Of a DNA stretch of 64,000 nucleotides, positions 1-9,151 are shown piece by piece; within the stretch, counting starts at the first letter, position 1, and each line of letters starts with the position of its first letter. Origin of the DNA: Candidatus Poribacteria bacterium (GTDB lineage Bacteria > Poribacteria > WGA-4E > WGA-3G). A program made the translations under genes and the position numbers. The DNA lies in contig PYIY01000201.1 of assembly GCA_003635195.1 (NCBI GenBank), forward strand, positions 1 through 64,000. Reading direction: 5' to 3'. Below the pieces are notes generated by a model. It was given only the letters and a program-made list of their open reading frames with translations. It was not told the origin of the DNA and searched no databases.

Positions 1-1482
1 ATGCAAACTTACGTGTGGCATCCAGAGACGGGTGAGGTAATCGTCAAGTTTGCGGGCAGAAATTTTGTCTTTTCTCCGGACAGTCGTCTGCTGGCGGGTG
101 CAGCGTTTGACGAAACTCTTGGTGATACCGATCGCGTTGACCGTTGCGTTTCGATATGGGATGTAACAACGGGTGAGCGCATCTCACACTTCTCAACGCA
201 TACGGATTGGGTGGAGAATATAACCTTTTCGCCGTGTGGTAAATTTCTTGTGTCGAGTAGTTGGGATAAAAGTCTGCGCGTGTGGGATGTCACAAAAGGT
301 ATACAAAAGAAGGCTTATACCGATTCTGAAACAGATTGGGGATTCCCTTTCTACTCGCCAGAAGGGAAATTATTGACTGTTGTACGTCGCCATGAGAATA
401 CTAATATAGCCATTGATATCTGCAGTGTAGAACCCCGTGAAAAACTACAAACAATTGAGCTTTTAAGAGGGAGCGTTGGTGCGATGTGGTTTTTCAGATG
501 TCCACAGTTGATTATCGCCTACGCGCTGTCCAACAAATGGACGGATGGCAAAACACAAACATTCCCAACACTTCGTGAACCTCATTTCCCGTGGCCCTAT
601 CCCAAGGTGGCTTGGTTGGATAACCAAACGCTCGCGAGTACCCGCGATTATCCCGGTATTGAGTTATGGGATGTTGCCCAAAAGTGTCCACGTGAAACAT
701 TGTTAAAGGGTAAGAACATTTATACGTACACTGTTCTGGCCTGCGGAAGGATACTGGGCACCCGTCTCTACAATGAGACCAAGGTATGGGATGCCAGTAA
801 ACCGGACGAACCCGTCGCTGAGTTCACAGCACCTAAGGAACCTTCGGATTGGGTGCGTCACGAGATATTCGCGCCTACTGGTGATCGGATCGCAGTGGGG
901 AGTCGAGAAGGCACGGTTTATGTATGGAACTTCCAGAACCCAGAGGAACCAACACTTCTCATAGGACATACGGATTACGTTACATCACTAGCGTTTTCGC
1001 CGGATGGCAAGCGGTTGGTGAGCGGGGCGCGCGACGACACCACTCGTCTGTGGGATGTTGCGTCAGGCGAACAAATTGCTACGCTGCCCTTGGATGAACC
1101 TCGGACAACTATGGGGATAGCGTTCTCACCGTTTGGCAAGATAATTGCCGGTGGAATGGACGAGGAGATTCGCTTCTGGTGCGCTGAGCAACTGACAACG
1201 TTACGCACGATACCGCAATCTGAGAACAGCCGACGGACGTATGCTCTCGCTTTTTCGCCGTGCGGCAAATATCTTGTATCAGCGACTTGGTGGCGGAGGG
1301 GGATGGAGAAGATGGCAACCCGTTTATGGGACGTTGCCACAGGCGAGAATATCCATACCTTCTGGGGACATACAACAGACGTGCAGTCACTCGCCTTTTC
1401 ACCAGATAACACGCTACTGGCGAGTGGAAGTTTTGATGGCACAATCCTGTTGTGGGATGTGCGACCTTTTATTGGTTCTTAA
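1..1482 (+). CDS. WD40 repeat protein, 5'-truncated by window edge
   Basis: The protein is built from WD40 blades. Repeated endings of the form W-D-V are seen near residues 53, 95 and 226 and near the C-terminus, with matching S-P-D/C-G-K turns and G-H-T-D openings (for example around residues 320-350 and 455-485). At least seven blades can be made out, so a beta-propeller scaffold for protein contacts is expected, with no enzymatic residues visible. The first base of the window is already in frame and the protein begins inside a blade, so the true start probably lies upstream. The stop at 1482 is followed by about 145 bp with no gene. Its partner is unknown; the downstream ATPase pair has its own likely promoter. 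Confidence 0.85.
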   Translation: MQTYVWHPETGEVIVKFAGRNFVFSPDSRLLAGAAFDETLGDTDRVDRCVSIWDVTTGERISHFSTHTDWVENITFSPCGKFLVSSSWDKSLRVWDVTKGIQKKAYTDSETDWGFPFYSPEGKLLTVVRRHENTNIAIDICSVEPREKLQTIELLRGSVGAMWFFRCPQLIIAYALSNKWTDGKTQTFPTLREPHFPWPYPKVAWLDNQTLASTRDYPGIELWDVAQKCPRETLLKGKNIYTYTVLACGRILGTRLYNETKVWDASKPDEPVAEFTAPKEPSDWVRHEIFAPTGDRIAVGSREGTVYVWNFQNPEEPTLLIGHTDYVTSLAFSPDGKRLVSGARDDTTRLWDVASGEQIATLPLDEPRTTMGIAFSPFGKIIAGGMDEEIRFWCAEQLTTLRTIPQSENSRRTYALAFSPCGKYLVSATWWRRGMEKMATRLWDVATGENIHTFWGHTTDVQSLAFSPDNTLLASGSFDGTILLWDVRPFIGS

Positions 1483-1628: not shown

Positions 1629-2768
1629 ATGATTATCAATCGGCTTATCGTAAAGAATTGGCGGAATTTTCAACAGATTAACGTTCCGCTCAGGGAACGT
1701 CAGTTTATTGTCGGTCCAAATGCATCAGGTAAATCCAACCTGTTAGACATCTTTCGCTTTCTCCGCGATATCGCCAAAGCCGAAGGGGGAGGACTCCAAA
1801 AAGCGATCAGTGACCGAGGGGGTGTTTCCAAAATTCGGTGCCTGTCCGCGAGGCAAGATCCAGAGGTTGCCATCGAAATTCACATCGCAGACACGCCAGA
1901 TGCCCCCGCTATATGGCGATATAGCGTAGGGTTTCGTCAAGCAGATCGTGAACCTTGCCAAGCGCATCTCACATACGAACGCGTCTGGAGAGGGGATGAA
2001 CTCCTTCTTGATAGACCCGATGCAGAGGACAACGAGGATCCAGATCGCCTTACACAGACCGCCCTTGAGCAGATCGCTGCCAATGCGAAGTTTCGGGAGG
2101 TTGGACGATTTCTTCGTAATGTTACCTATCTCCATCTGGTCCCACAACTTATCCGTTTCGCCGATGTGATTCAGGGCAGGGTTATTGAAGACGATCCTTT
2201 TGGTCAGGGATTTCTTGAACGCGTCGCGAGTGTGCATCCGAGTACCCGCCGTGCTCGTCTGAAAAGAATTGAACGGACCCTCAAAATCGCAGTCCCGCAG
2301 TTTGAAAAATTGGAATTTATTCGTGACAACAGAGGGCGACCACACTTACAGGCACATTATTCCCACTGGCGTTCAAATGAAGAAGGACAGCACGAAAACC
2401 AATTTTCGGATGGCGTACTTCGGCTTATTGGACTCCTATGGTCTCTGCTTGAAAGCGACTCAATAATATTATTAGAAGAACCAGAACTCTCTTTAAACAT
2501 AGGTATTATTTCTCAACTTGCCCCTTCTATTTCTCGTCTGCAAAGAAGTCGCGGATCACAGGTATTGGTTAGCACACAAAGTGATGTGCTACTTATAGAG
2601 CCCGGCATTGATGGGAGAGAAGTGCTTTTGCTCATACCTGAAAAAGAAGGAACCATCGTCAAGATTTCGTCTGACATCGATTATATCCGGGCACTTCTTA
2701 AAGCAGGTCTCACAGCCGGTGAAGTCGTGCTAACCAGATATCCAGAACAATCGAGCCTATTAAAATGA
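1629..2768 (+). CDS. AAA/ABC-type ATPase of a two-gene OLD/PARIS-like defence module
   Basis: A RecF/SMC-like ATPase of about 379 residues. Walker A (GPNASGKS) is at residues 29-36, an ABC-signature-like FSDG segment lies near residue 268, and Walker B reads ILLEEPE. The switch position has STQSD where family members commonly have THS. I chose ATG 1629 because the protein then starts with the typical short beta-strand before the P-loop; the frame is open to 1566 but adds unrelated residues. The gene overlaps the next one by 4 bp (ATGA), so the two are probably translationally coupled. Family knowledge: such ATPases act with a TOPRIM nuclease in OLD, Gabija and PARIS-type anti-phage systems. 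Membership in any named system is inference. Confidence 0.8.
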   Translation: MIINRLIVKNWRNFQQINVPLRERQFIVGPNASGKSNLLDIFRFLRDIAKAEGGGLQKAISDRGGVSKIRCLSARQDPEVAIEIHIADTPDAPAIWRYSVGFRQADREPCQAHLTYERVWRGDELLLDRPDAEDNEDPDRLTQTALEQIAANAKFREVGRFLRNVTYLHLVPQLIRFADVIQGRVIEDDPFGQGFLERVASVHPSTRRARLKRIERTLKIAVPQFEKLEFIRDNRGRPHLQAHYSHWRSNEEGQHENQFSDGVLRLIGLLWSLLESDSIILLEEPELSLNIGIISQLAPSISRLQRSRGSQVLVSTQSDVLLIEPGIDGREVLLLIPEKEGTIVKISSDIDYIRALLKAGLTAGEVVLTRYPEQSSLLK

Positions 2769-3367
2769 GTCTGAATAACGTAATTCTCGCGGTTGAGGAT
2801 AGGCTCAGTGATGCAGTGGCGACCAAAATTCTTGAGACGTTTGGTGTTGAAATCGTGGACAGAATCGGGTTCCAAGGAAAATCGCATCTTGAACGAAAAA
2901 CGCCCGAATTCAATAGAGCCGCCAACGGTATAACAGTGTTTATGTTGACAGATTTAGACACGCCCCGGGAGTGTCCACCAAGACTTATCCAGTCGTGGAT
3001 CAGAGGTACTCTCAATCCAAGATTTTTCTTTCGTGTGGCAGTTATGGAGGTTGAATCTTGGGTGATGGCGGATCGGATGGGATTTGCAGCTTTTCTATCT
3101 GTCCCCTTACATCGAATTCCGTCGCCGACGGACGATCTCTTGAACCCTAAAGAGTTTCTTTTATCGCTTGCCAGGAGAAGTAAAAAGAAGACCGTCCGCG
3201 AAGCATTGGTGCCCGCACAAGGTGCAACATTCAGCGTAGGCAATGAATATAATACACTTTTGAGTGAATTCGTTCAAGACCATTGGGATTTAGAACGCGC
3301 TGCTACCGCATCTCCGAGTTTAAAACGAACATTAGACCGACTCGCTAAAGAAAAAGGCAGGTACTAG
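2765..3367 (+). CDS. TOPRIM-like/DUF4276-like putative nuclease partner
   Basis: A 200-residue protein with the sparse motif pattern of TOPRIM-fold proteins. There is an early acidic residue after a beta-strand (Glu11 in AVED), a D-L-D pair at residues 63 and 65 followed by TP, and a strand with MEVESW (Glu95, Glu97) that matches the H/R-E-x-E-A-W-type motif of DUF4276-like proteins. The start overlaps the stop of the upstream ATPase. The pairing resembles AriA/AriB (PARIS) or OLD-type modules, in which the ATPase senses infection and the TOPRIM subunit acts as nuclease. The fold assignment is by motif only and needs a profile search. The stop is 6 bp before the next gene. Confidence 0.65.
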   Translation: MSLNNVILAVEDRLSDAVATKILETFGVEIVDRIGFQGKSHLERKTPEFNRAANGITVFMLTDLDTPRECPPRLIQSWIRGTLNPRFFFRVAVMEVESWVMADRMGFAAFLSVPLHRIPSPTDDLLNPKEFLLSLARRSKKKTVREALVPAQGATFSVGNEYNTLLSEFVQDHWDLERAATASPSLKRTLDRLAKEKGRY

Positions 3368-3373
3368 AGATCT

Positions 3374-3691
3374 GTGAACAAAAAATTCCAACGCCATATT
3401 GAAGATTTCACCTGTTCACATTGTGGTGCCGCTGTCAATGGAGACGGCTACACCAATCACTGTCCAGAGTGTCTCTGGAGCCGACATGTTGATATCAATC
3501 CCGGCGACCGAGCCGCGTTCTGTCAAGGCATGATGGAACCGATAGGGTTCACCGTAAAACATGGCAATTATATTCTGACTCACCGCTGCACAACATGCGG
3601 CATCGAAAAAAAGAACAAAACATCAAAAAATGACAGTTTTGCGGCGATTCTAAACTTAATGAGTTTTGAAAATAAAAAGAAAAATAGGTAA
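3374..3691 (+). CDS. RNHCP domain zinc-binding protein
   Basis: A small 105-residue protein with a GTG start. Cysteine pairs CSHC, CPEC and CTTC, the last preceded by HR, together with an RH-V-D motif in the middle, match the RNHCP family, named for its conserved R-N-H-C-P type motifs and thought to bind zinc. Its function is unknown. The C-terminus is lysine- and asparagine-rich. The gene starts 6 bp after the TOPRIM-like gene and could be co-transcribed with it, but RNHCP proteins are widespread and not known as defence components. Confidence 0.75.
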   Translation: MNKKFQRHIEDFTCSHCGAAVNGDGYTNHCPECLWSRHVDINPGDRAAFCQGMMEPIGFTVKHGNYILTHRCTTCGIEKKNKTSKNDSFAAILNLMSFENKKKNR

Positions 3692-7500: not shown

Positions 7501-8808
7501 TTGCACAAACAGAATCGTAAAGCCTTTATTGAAAAAATGGGGAGTGGAGGTGTCGCTATTTTCGCCAGTGCACCGCCCGCGAAATGGAACCATGATACTG
7601 AACATATTTACCGTCCGGATCCCAATTTTTATTACTTAACGGGGTTTGAAGAACCGGAATCCGTCTGTGTCATCGCGCCTGAACATCCGAAGTACCAGTA
7701 TATCCTTTTCGTTCGTCCGAAAGATAAGCAAGCGGAAATTTGGAACGGTAAGCGCGTCGGCGTTAAGGATGCGCGGAAACGCTATGGTGCTGATAAAGTC
7801 TATCCGATAGAAAAGTTCGGTGAAAAAATCGGGAAATACCTACAGGATGCCGAAAGACTTTACTATACCCTCGGTTCCAATGAAGATGTTGATACCGAAA
7901 TCCTTGCACTTTTCACACAGTCTGTGAAATCACGGATCCGCTCCGGCAAAGGATTTGATACGCTTGTCGATCCAAGTCCCATTCTCAGTGAACTACGGTT
8001 AATCAAAAACGAGACCGAACTGCAGCGCATCCGGATGGCAACGGAGATTACAGTAGCGGGTCACGCCGCAGCAATGAAAGCAGTGCGTCCAGGAATGTAT
8101 GAATACGATTTAGAGGCACTCGTTGAATCCACGTTCCGTATGAACGGTGCCGGCGGTCCCGCTTTTCCGACCATCGTGGCGAGTGGTGGTAACGCGACGA
8201 TCCTCCACTACACAACAAATAACCGCCAAATTGAAGACGAAACGCTTGTCCTCATTGATGCAGGCGCGGAATACGATCGGTACTGTGGGGACGTGACCCG
8301 GACCTTCCCTGCCAACGGTACCTTCACTGCGGCGCAAAGAGAGATTTACCAATTAGTTCTTGATGCACACCATGCAATTATTGAGGGTATCCGTCCGGGT
8401 GTTTCTATTGATGAACCCCACCAAAAGTCGATTGAGTTGTTAACAGAAAGCATGCTCAGCCTTGGGCTTCTAAAGGGAAAAGCGGAGAAATTGATAGAAA
8501 AAGAAAAATATCGGCAGTTTTACATGTACCGCATCGGACACATGCTCGGCTTAGATGTCCACGATGTCAACTGTGTCCGCGAACCAGATGGCGAGTTTAA
8601 AACCTTCCAGCCGGGGATGGTGATGACAATTGAGCCAGGACTTTATGTCGCCGACGATACAAAGAATGTGCCATCCGCCTATCTGGATATCGGTATCCGT
8701 ATAGAGGACGACCTTCTTGTCACAGAATCCGGTTGCGAAGTCTTAACAGATGAGGTACCGAAAGAGATTGATGAAATCGAAGCACTTGTAAACAGTAGAA
8801 AGTGGTAG
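7501..8808 (+). CDS. pepP: Xaa-Pro aminopeptidase (M24B family)
   Basis: Removes N-terminal residues that precede proline. It has the N-terminal creatinase-like domain (residues 1-140, with PDPNFYYLTGF) and the C-terminal pita-bread metallopeptidase domain. Metal ligands expected for the family are visible: DAGAEYDRYCGDVTRTFP carries two Asp, HMLGLDVHD carries His, TIEPGLYV carries Glu, and RIEDDLLV carries the last Glu. The length (435) is usual. The start is TTG at 7501, supported by AAGGAGG at 7487-7493 with ideal spacing; no in-frame ATG exists before the conserved region. It cytoplasmically processes peptides, possibly with the upstream hydrolase. Confidence 0.92.
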   Translation: MHKQNRKAFIEKMGSGGVAIFASAPPAKWNHDTEHIYRPDPNFYYLTGFEEPESVCVIAPEHPKYQYILFVRPKDKQAEIWNGKRVGVKDARKRYGADKVYPIEKFGEKIGKYLQDAERLYYTLGSNEDVDTEILALFTQSVKSRIRSGKGFDTLVDPSPILSELRLIKNETELQRIRMATEITVAGHAAAMKAVRPGMYEYDLEALVESTFRMNGAGGPAFPTIVASGGNATILHYTTNNRQIEDETLVLIDAGAEYDRYCGDVTRTFPANGTFTAAQREIYQLVLDAHHAIIEGIRPGVSIDEPHQKSIELLTESMLSLGLLKGKAEKLIEKEKYRQFYMYRIGHMLGLDVHDVNCVREPDGEFKTFQPGMVMTIEPGLYVADDTKNVPSAYLDIGIRIEDDLLVTESGCEVLTDEVPKEIDEIEALVNSRKW

Positions 8809-8858
8809 ACCTATTCTGTCCGCCGTTCACCGTAATTCCTAACTTGGAGGCACATGTT

Positions 8859-9151
8859 ATGATTGAAAACTTAAAGCAGACAATAGTAGAGATGAAGGAC
8901 GTAATCCGTCAGAAATACAAAGCCGAGATTAAAGGTATCTTCGGTTCATATACACGCGGTGATTTCCATGCAGACAGCGATTTGGATCTCTTAGTAGATT
9001 TCGATGCGGGTGCTGATCTGATGGATCACGTTAATCTCCAACGATTTTTGGAAGATAGATTGGAATGTAAGATTGATGTCGTATCACGACGCTCATGCCG
9101 AGAGAAGAAAAACTTCATGCCTCTGTTTTCGACAACGTGATTAGCCTGTAG
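8859..9151 (+). pseudogene. MNT-type nucleotidyltransferase gene with C-terminal frameshift
   Basis: Minimal nucleotidyltransferase of the MntA/HepT-antitoxin type. GSYTRGDFHADSDLDLLVDFD contains the GS-x-DxD active-site pattern. The start ATG 8859 has TTGGAGG at 8844-8850. Up to about residue 76 it matches the intact paralogue at 18562-18849 closely. After that the frame diverges and stops at 9140, whereas a -1 shift near 9090-9120 restores the expected ending (ASVFDNVISL, stop at 9149-9151). It therefore looks like a one-base deletion or a sequencing error. No HepT-type toxin gene follows; instead the next 300 bp are repeats. Confidence 0.75.

What the first reader, a model, noticed from the sequence alone, without database searches (positions are those of the whole stretch)
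1629..3367. Two-gene ATPase/TOPRIM-like module resembling OLD or PARIS
Overlapping genes encode an SMC-like ATPase and a small protein with a spaced Glu/D-L-D/E-x-E-W pattern. The ATPase switch has Gln where His is usual (STQSD). This is the plan of OLD and PARIS modules (AriA/AriB), but the nuclease belongs to a DUF4276-like rather than DUF4435-like group by motif. It may be an unnamed defence variant.
Basis: partly seen in the sequence, partly recalled or inferred. Interest (0 to 1): 0.65.

Follow-up and report, generated by a model that had tools for sequence, protein, structure and literature searches.

The report
Catalogued HEC-01 ATPase–nuclease pair, Poribacteria
This is an already catalogued but apparently untested candidate anti-virus gene pair (a sensor-type ATPase plus a small nuclease) in a sponge-associated bacterium, sitting at one fixed chromosome site where relatives repeatedly lose the nuclease while keeping the ATPase, as expected if the nuclease is the harmful half.

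Summary
Two genes with a 4-bp ATGA overlap encode an OLD/SMC-type ABC ATPase (379 aa, 1629-2768) and a 200-aa protein (2765-3367) with an E11 / D63-x-D65 / E95-x-E97-x-W99 metal-site pattern. The second protein is a divergent DUF4276 with a TOPRIM-like fold. Its best solved-structure match is the OLD TOPRIM domain and its best viral match is RloB. By profile comparison it is not DUF4435/AriB. The pair is not unnamed: both proteins match PADLOC HEC-01A and HEC-01B (E 5.7e-141 and 1.6e-60), a candidate system for which I found no experiment. The host is Candidatus Poribacteria. In its genus the pair is intact at one fixed site, just upstream of a core RNHCP gene, in 19 of 38 genomes. In 11 it is absent. 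In 5 the nuclease is deleted or frameshifted while the ATPase stays open, and in 3 both are broken. No genome has an intact nuclease with a broken ATPase. This suggests a PARIS-like logic: the ATPase restrains or licenses a toxic TOPRIM nuclease. The Gln switch occurs only in a subset of Poribacteria; relatives elsewhere have His. The pair is a new member of a known candidate family.

The parts
1629..2768 (+). HEC-01A-like OLD/SMC-type ABC ATPase (AAA_21), 379 aa; Walker A GPNASGKS, FSDG signature-like motif, Walker B LLEEPE, switch STQSD (Gln in place of His)
   Evidence: AAA_21 E 4.4e-36; PDLC04180 E 5.7e-141; alignment; profile matches GajA, OLD, AriA, PtuA; AlphaFold model; Foldseek PtuA/GajA/Rad50/SMC heads, E down to 1e-13
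2765..3367 (+). HEC-01B-like DUF4276 protein, 200 aa, predicted TOPRIM-like metal-dependent nuclease; E11, D63/D65, E95/E97, W99; starts inside the ATPase stop codon (ATGA)
   Evidence: DUF4276 E 6e-5, below cut-off; PDLC04194 E 1.6e-60; model pLDDT 89.5; top PDB hit 6njw OLD C-terminal region, prob 0.97, E 2e-3; top viral hit RloB-like, prob 0.99; hhalign
3374..3691 (+). RNHCP-domain gene: core neighbour that marks the fixed insertion site; not judged part of the module
   Evidence: PF12647 E 8.9e-30; present in 38/38 genus genomes whether or not the pair is there; absent beside the pair in other phyla
1..1482 (+). WD40-repeat gene, 5' boundary of the site; not part of the module
   Evidence: in some empty-site genomes the WD40 gene lies about 50 bp from RNHCP

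Best explanation
The pair is a HEC-01 module that works like a split OLD (PARIS-type) immune device. The ABC ATPase assembles as a sensor and scaffold that holds the small TOPRIM/DUF4276 nuclease inactive. On sensing an invader-linked trigger it lets the nuclease cut nucleic acid (host tRNA/RNA or DNA), which stops growth or phage replication. Shown here: two co-translated genes, intact ATPase and metal-site motifs, a TOPRIM-like predicted fold, purifying selection, recurrent loss in which the nuclease goes first, and linkage of some copies to other defence genes. Inferred: complex formation, restraint by the ATPase, the trigger, the substrate and the anti-phage effect.
For: Both proteins match PADLOC HEC-01 models. 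The ATPase resembles GajA/OLD/AriA/PtuA by profile and fold. The nuclease is DUF4276, and its top structural neighbours are the OLD TOPRIM domain and RloB. Metal-site residues are invariant across phyla. The pair is always adjacent in 33 loci from seven or more lineages. Loss is asymmetric. In G013, G018, G036, G001, G026 and the second copy of G040 the ATPase frame is open and the nuclease is deleted, frameshifted or wrecked; the reverse was never seen. Under a gene-length target model the chance of 6:0 is about 0.002; for the four cases that are not single-base frameshifts it is about 0.014. Junctions differ, and states are scattered over a tree of neighbouring genes. Some mobile copies sit by pAgo, type IIG or type III methyltransferase genes. 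PARIS precedent: AriA sequesters AriB (PMC12409363).
Against: No experiment. Foldseek support for TOPRIM is modest (E 2e-3, TM 0.33 for OLD; TM 0.47 for RloB). Two of the six nuclease lesions are single-base frameshifts in metagenome-assembled genomes and may be errors. In the Poribacteria the pair sits at a fixed, seemingly non-mobile site rather than in an obvious defence island. No close relative was found in phages, plasmids or viral contigs. The complex was not modelled.
Confidence: 0.6

Rival explanations
1. A chromosomally settled ATPase-nuclease with a housekeeping or repair role in Poribacteria, like Cran1 (class 5 OLD, cell-cycle role) in Sulfolobales.
For: Fixed synteny across genera of one family; purifying selection; Cran1 precedent (PMC12796447).
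Against: Absent from 11 and damaged in 8 of 38 genomes of the genus, including single-contig assemblies without it (G021, G028). Cran1 is apparently essential; this is not. Copies elsewhere lie near defence genes.
Confidence: 0.12
2. A toxin-antitoxin pair kept mainly by addiction or as a selfish element, with the ATPase as antitoxin and no phage-specific trigger.
For: Nuclease-first decay; overlapping genes.
Against: Frequent complete loss; not found on plasmids or phages; all ATP-binding motifs conserved, which a plain antitoxin would not need; ATPase frame with low dN/dS even in nuclease-less G018.
Confidence: 0.2
3. The small protein is not a nuclease: DUF4276 is a Rossmann-like domain with another function.
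For: Many weak Rossmann-like hits below the first Foldseek hit; no PDB hit by sequence.
Against: Strand-helix order with E after strand 1 and DxD after strand 3, plus an invariant ExExW; best hits are OLD TOPRIM and RloB.
Confidence: 0.08

Closest known systems
HEC-01 (PADLOC-DB candidate system, HEC-01A/HEC-01B)
   Same: Both proteins match the models nearly full length (PDLC04180 1-371/382; PDLC04194 1-198/204), adjacent and in the same order.
   Different: Gln instead of His in the ATPase switch in part of the Poribacteria; fixed chromosomal site; no direct experiment known to me or found in the library for either.
PARIS (AriA + AriB, 'class 4' OLD)
   Same: Two-gene ABC ATPase + TOPRIM nuclease plan; nuclease seems to be the toxic half.
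   Different: Nuclease is DUF4276 not DUF4435 (hhalign 97.1 vs 0.7); ATPase is 379 aa against 464 aa for the AriA chains in the PDB; best ATPase model is HEC-01A, not AriA.
OLD / Gabija GajA / retron Eco8 effector
   Same: N-terminal ATPase profile match; TOPRIM is the nearest solved fold of the nuclease.
   Different: ATPase and nuclease are separate genes; no helicase (GajB) or reverse transcriptase partner.
AbiL / RloAB
   Same: ATPase matches AbiLi (E 3.8e-16); nuclease model's best viral fold match is RloB-like.
   Different: Nuclease gives no AbiLii/RloB sequence match at E<=1.
Cran1 (class 5 OLD, Sulfolobales)
   Same: Vertically kept OLD-type ATPase/nuclease at a conserved locus.
   Different: Cran1 is a fused protein and apparently essential; here the pair is split and often lost.

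Membership tests
HEC-01 (PADLOC) | ATPase matching HEC-01A | tested here: met
   PDLC04180 E 5.7e-141, 1-371/382
HEC-01 (PADLOC) | DUF4276-type protein matching HEC-01B, adjacent | tested here: met
   PDLC04194 E 1.6e-60, 1-198/204; ATGA overlap. PADLOC's exact system rule was not at hand
HEC-01 (PADLOC) | Anti-phage activity | not testable with these tools
   The library search found the name only as a prediction in one survey
PARIS | AriB = DUF4435 TOPRIM nuclease | tested here: not met
   No AriB/DUF4435 hit at E<=1; hhalign prob 0.7
PARIS | AriA-type ATPase as the best match | tested here: not met
   HEC-01A 468 bits vs AriA 108 bits
PARIS | ATPase sequesters nuclease and releases it on a phage trigger | not testable with these tools
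   Only indirect: nuclease-first decay
OLD family (classes 1-3) | ATPase and TOPRIM fused in one protein | tested here: not met
   Two genes in the window and in all homologous loci
TOPRIM nuclease | E after strand 1, DxD after strand 3, TOPRIM fold | tested here: inconclusive
   Motifs and topology present; top PDB hit OLD TOPRIM with prob 0.97 but TM 0.33
DUF4276 | Family profile | tested here: met
   Pfam E 6e-5, below the curated cut-off; hhalign prob 97.1, E 5.6e-11, motifs in register
AbiL / RloAB | RloB/AbiLii nuclease | tested here: not met
   No sequence match at E<=1; only fold similarity to an RloB-like protein
MADS | Mad3 ATPase with the other Mad genes | tested here: not met
   mad3 E 1.5e-17, far below HEC-01A; NCBIfam 69 vs cut-off 420; no Mad partner by the nuclease scan

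The most novel reading that the evidence does not exclude
The Poribacterial locus is a natural record of how a split OLD immune system decays. The TOPRIM/DUF4276 effector is deleted first and repeatedly, leaving ATPase-only loci still under constraint. The ATPase would be a dedicated inhibitor/sensor that may keep a nuclease-independent role, and HEC-01 would be a separately evolved PARIS-like class.
Probability: 0.3. Interest if true: 0.5.

Novelty: new member of a known kind. Interest (0 to 1): 0.33.

Why it matters
HEC-01 is a catalogued candidate system without an experiment that I could find. This locus gives a concrete, testable hypothesis (toxic DUF4276 nuclease, restraining ATPase), natural intact and nuclease-less alleles at one site, and a set of residues to mutate. 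It also widens the split OLD-type architecture beyond PARIS by sequence and fold evidence.

Tried and rejected
RNHCP as a third module gene: rejected, since it is in all 38 genus genomes with or without the pair and is missing beside homologues in other phyla. A 5'-extended ATPase (TTG 1566): rejected, M1 at 1629 is invariant. 'AbiEii toxin' label of AAA_21: a Pfam name only, not followed. Gln switch as a defining trait: rejected, His is usual in relatives and both occur at the same site. Carriage by phages, plasmids or viral contigs: no match. PDB sequence search with the nuclease profile: no relevant hit. An orphan ATPase in G041 (C126) was not counted, because the contig ends 3' of it. The G022 ATPase is split over two contig ends, so it was counted as intact only on its nuclease. 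Automatic pairwise alignment of deletion junctions misplaced some ends; I read the junctions from the sequences instead.

Full report
What is there. Two genes on the + strand overlap by ATGA: an ATPase at 1629-2768 and a 200-aa protein at 2765-3367. The ATPase is AAA_21/OLD-like. Its profile matches GajA, a solved OLD, PtuA, AriA and SMC heads, and its model (pLDDT 81.8) matches PtuA, GajA, Rad50 and cohesin heads. The second protein is a weak DUF4276 hit by Pfam but a clear one by profile-profile comparison with Poribacterial DUF4276 relatives: probability 97.1, E 5.6e-11, with E11, D63/D65 and E95-x-E97-x-W99 in register. Against a DUF4435 (AriB-type) alignment the probability is 0.7, with only the N-terminal TOPRIM half aligned. 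Its model (pLDDT 89.5, pTM 0.87) has strand-helix-strand-helix-strand order with E11 after the first strand and the DxD after the third. The best of 850 PDB hits is the OLD C-terminal TOPRIM region (6njw, prob 0.97, E 2.1e-3), and the best viral-model hit is an RloB-like protein (prob 0.99). Similarity scores are modest, so TOPRIM is likely rather than proven.

Is it new? No. PADLOC-DB holds both proteins as HEC-01A and HEC-01B (E 5.7e-141 and 1.6e-60, near full length). The papers at hand that describe PADLOC do not discuss HEC-01, DUF4276 is not mentioned in any held paper, and the name HEC-01 occurs in one microbiology paper, as a prediction. 'HEC' as 'Hma-embedded candidate' is from memory. 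I found no experiment on it, but the library lacks most subscription journals.

Where it occurs. The host is Candidatus Poribacteria, judging from the records of close homologues. Homologous pairs, always ATPase then nuclease, also occur in Binatia, Myxococcales, Thermoanaerobaculia, Gammaproteobacteria, Desulfobulbaceae and Dehalococcoidia at about 34-66% identity, which implies horizontal movement. No close relative was found in phage, plasmid or viral-contig collections. In the Poribacterial family the pair sits at one fixed place: WD40 - ATPase - nuclease - RNHCP - OmpA - outer-membrane gene - rpiA. Copies at other sites and in other phyla lack RNHCP. Some of these lie beside defence genes: L044 by a prokaryotic Argonaute and an FRG-TPR gene, L040 by a type IIG restriction-modification gene, L053 by a type III methyltransferase. 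Others (L042, L049, L050) have metabolic or secretion neighbours.

Gain, loss and decay. RNHCP is in 38 of 38 genomes of the genus. At the site directly upstream of it the pair is intact in 19, missing in 11, nuclease-broken with an open ATPase frame in 5 (G013, G018, G036 by large deletions; G001, G026 by single-base frameshifts), and broken in both genes in 3 (G004, G008, G016). A further second-site copy in G040 has an open ATPase and a wrecked nuclease. In G004 and G008 a large nuclease deletion accompanies a single nonsense or frameshift lesion in the ATPase, so the nuclease probably went first there too. G010, an empty site, still carries the last codons of the nuclease before RNHCP, which shows loss rather than primary absence in that genome. 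Junctions differ between genomes and the states are scattered over a tree of RNHCP plus OmpA, so the losses are largely independent. The reverse state, intact nuclease without an intact ATPase, was not seen in 79 genomes. With a gene-length target model the probability of 6:0 is (200/579)^6, about 0.002; without the two frameshifts, which could be assembly errors, it is about 0.014. This is my arithmetic on the counts, and it assumes independence. ATPase dN/dS is about 0.08-0.13 and nuclease 0.10-0.29 against the window.

How it most likely works. PARIS gives the template: AriA, an ABC ATPase hexamer, holds AriB, a TOPRIM tRNase, and releases it when a phage trigger binds (PMC12409363). The plan, the conserved metal site and the nuclease-first decay fit a nuclease that is dangerous unless the ATPase is present. 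That part is inferred; substrate and trigger are unknown. A plain toxin-antitoxin reading and a Cran1-like cellular role (PMC12796447) are the main rivals. The latter is weakened by how often the pair is lost.

The Gln switch. STQSD is in the window and part of the Poribacteria. Other Poribacteria at the same site and all non-Poribacterial homologues in the alignment have His at that position. It is a lineage trait that may slow hydrolysis (inference), not a definition of the system.

Verdict. A correct observation and a good structural guess, but the system is already catalogued. The added value is the fixed-site presence/absence record and the one-sided decay.

Noticed in passing
L054:6053-9776 (Desulfobulbaceae): Here the ATPase gene starts at the very end of a SpoU/TrmJ-like RNA methylase gene, and the nuclease is followed about 64 bp later by an RtcB-type RNA ligase gene; possibly chance, but it hints at an RNA substrate or RNA repair.
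   Followed up: partly
L044:1179-6712 and L045:165-2207 (Poribacteria, second-site copies): An FRG-domain + TPR gene (PADLOC PDC-S15-like) lies just upstream of the ATPase in both loci, and a prokaryotic Argonaute gene is nearby in L044.
   Followed up: partly
L002, L003 (own genome, contigs C70 and C197) and relatives: Poribacteria carry several further DUF4276 + ATPase pairs of other subfamilies; 63 of 78 related genomes have at least one DUF4276 match.
   Followed up: partly
window 3367-3374 and relatives: In many relatives the nuclease stop overlaps the GTG start of RNHCP (CAGTGAAC), so losses of the nuclease tend to spare its last codons, which carry the RNHCP start region.
   Followed up: partly
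window 8802-9140: Small MNT-type nucleotidyltransferase gene (Polbeta/NTP_transf_2); a possible toxin-antitoxin half, not examined further.
   Followed up: no
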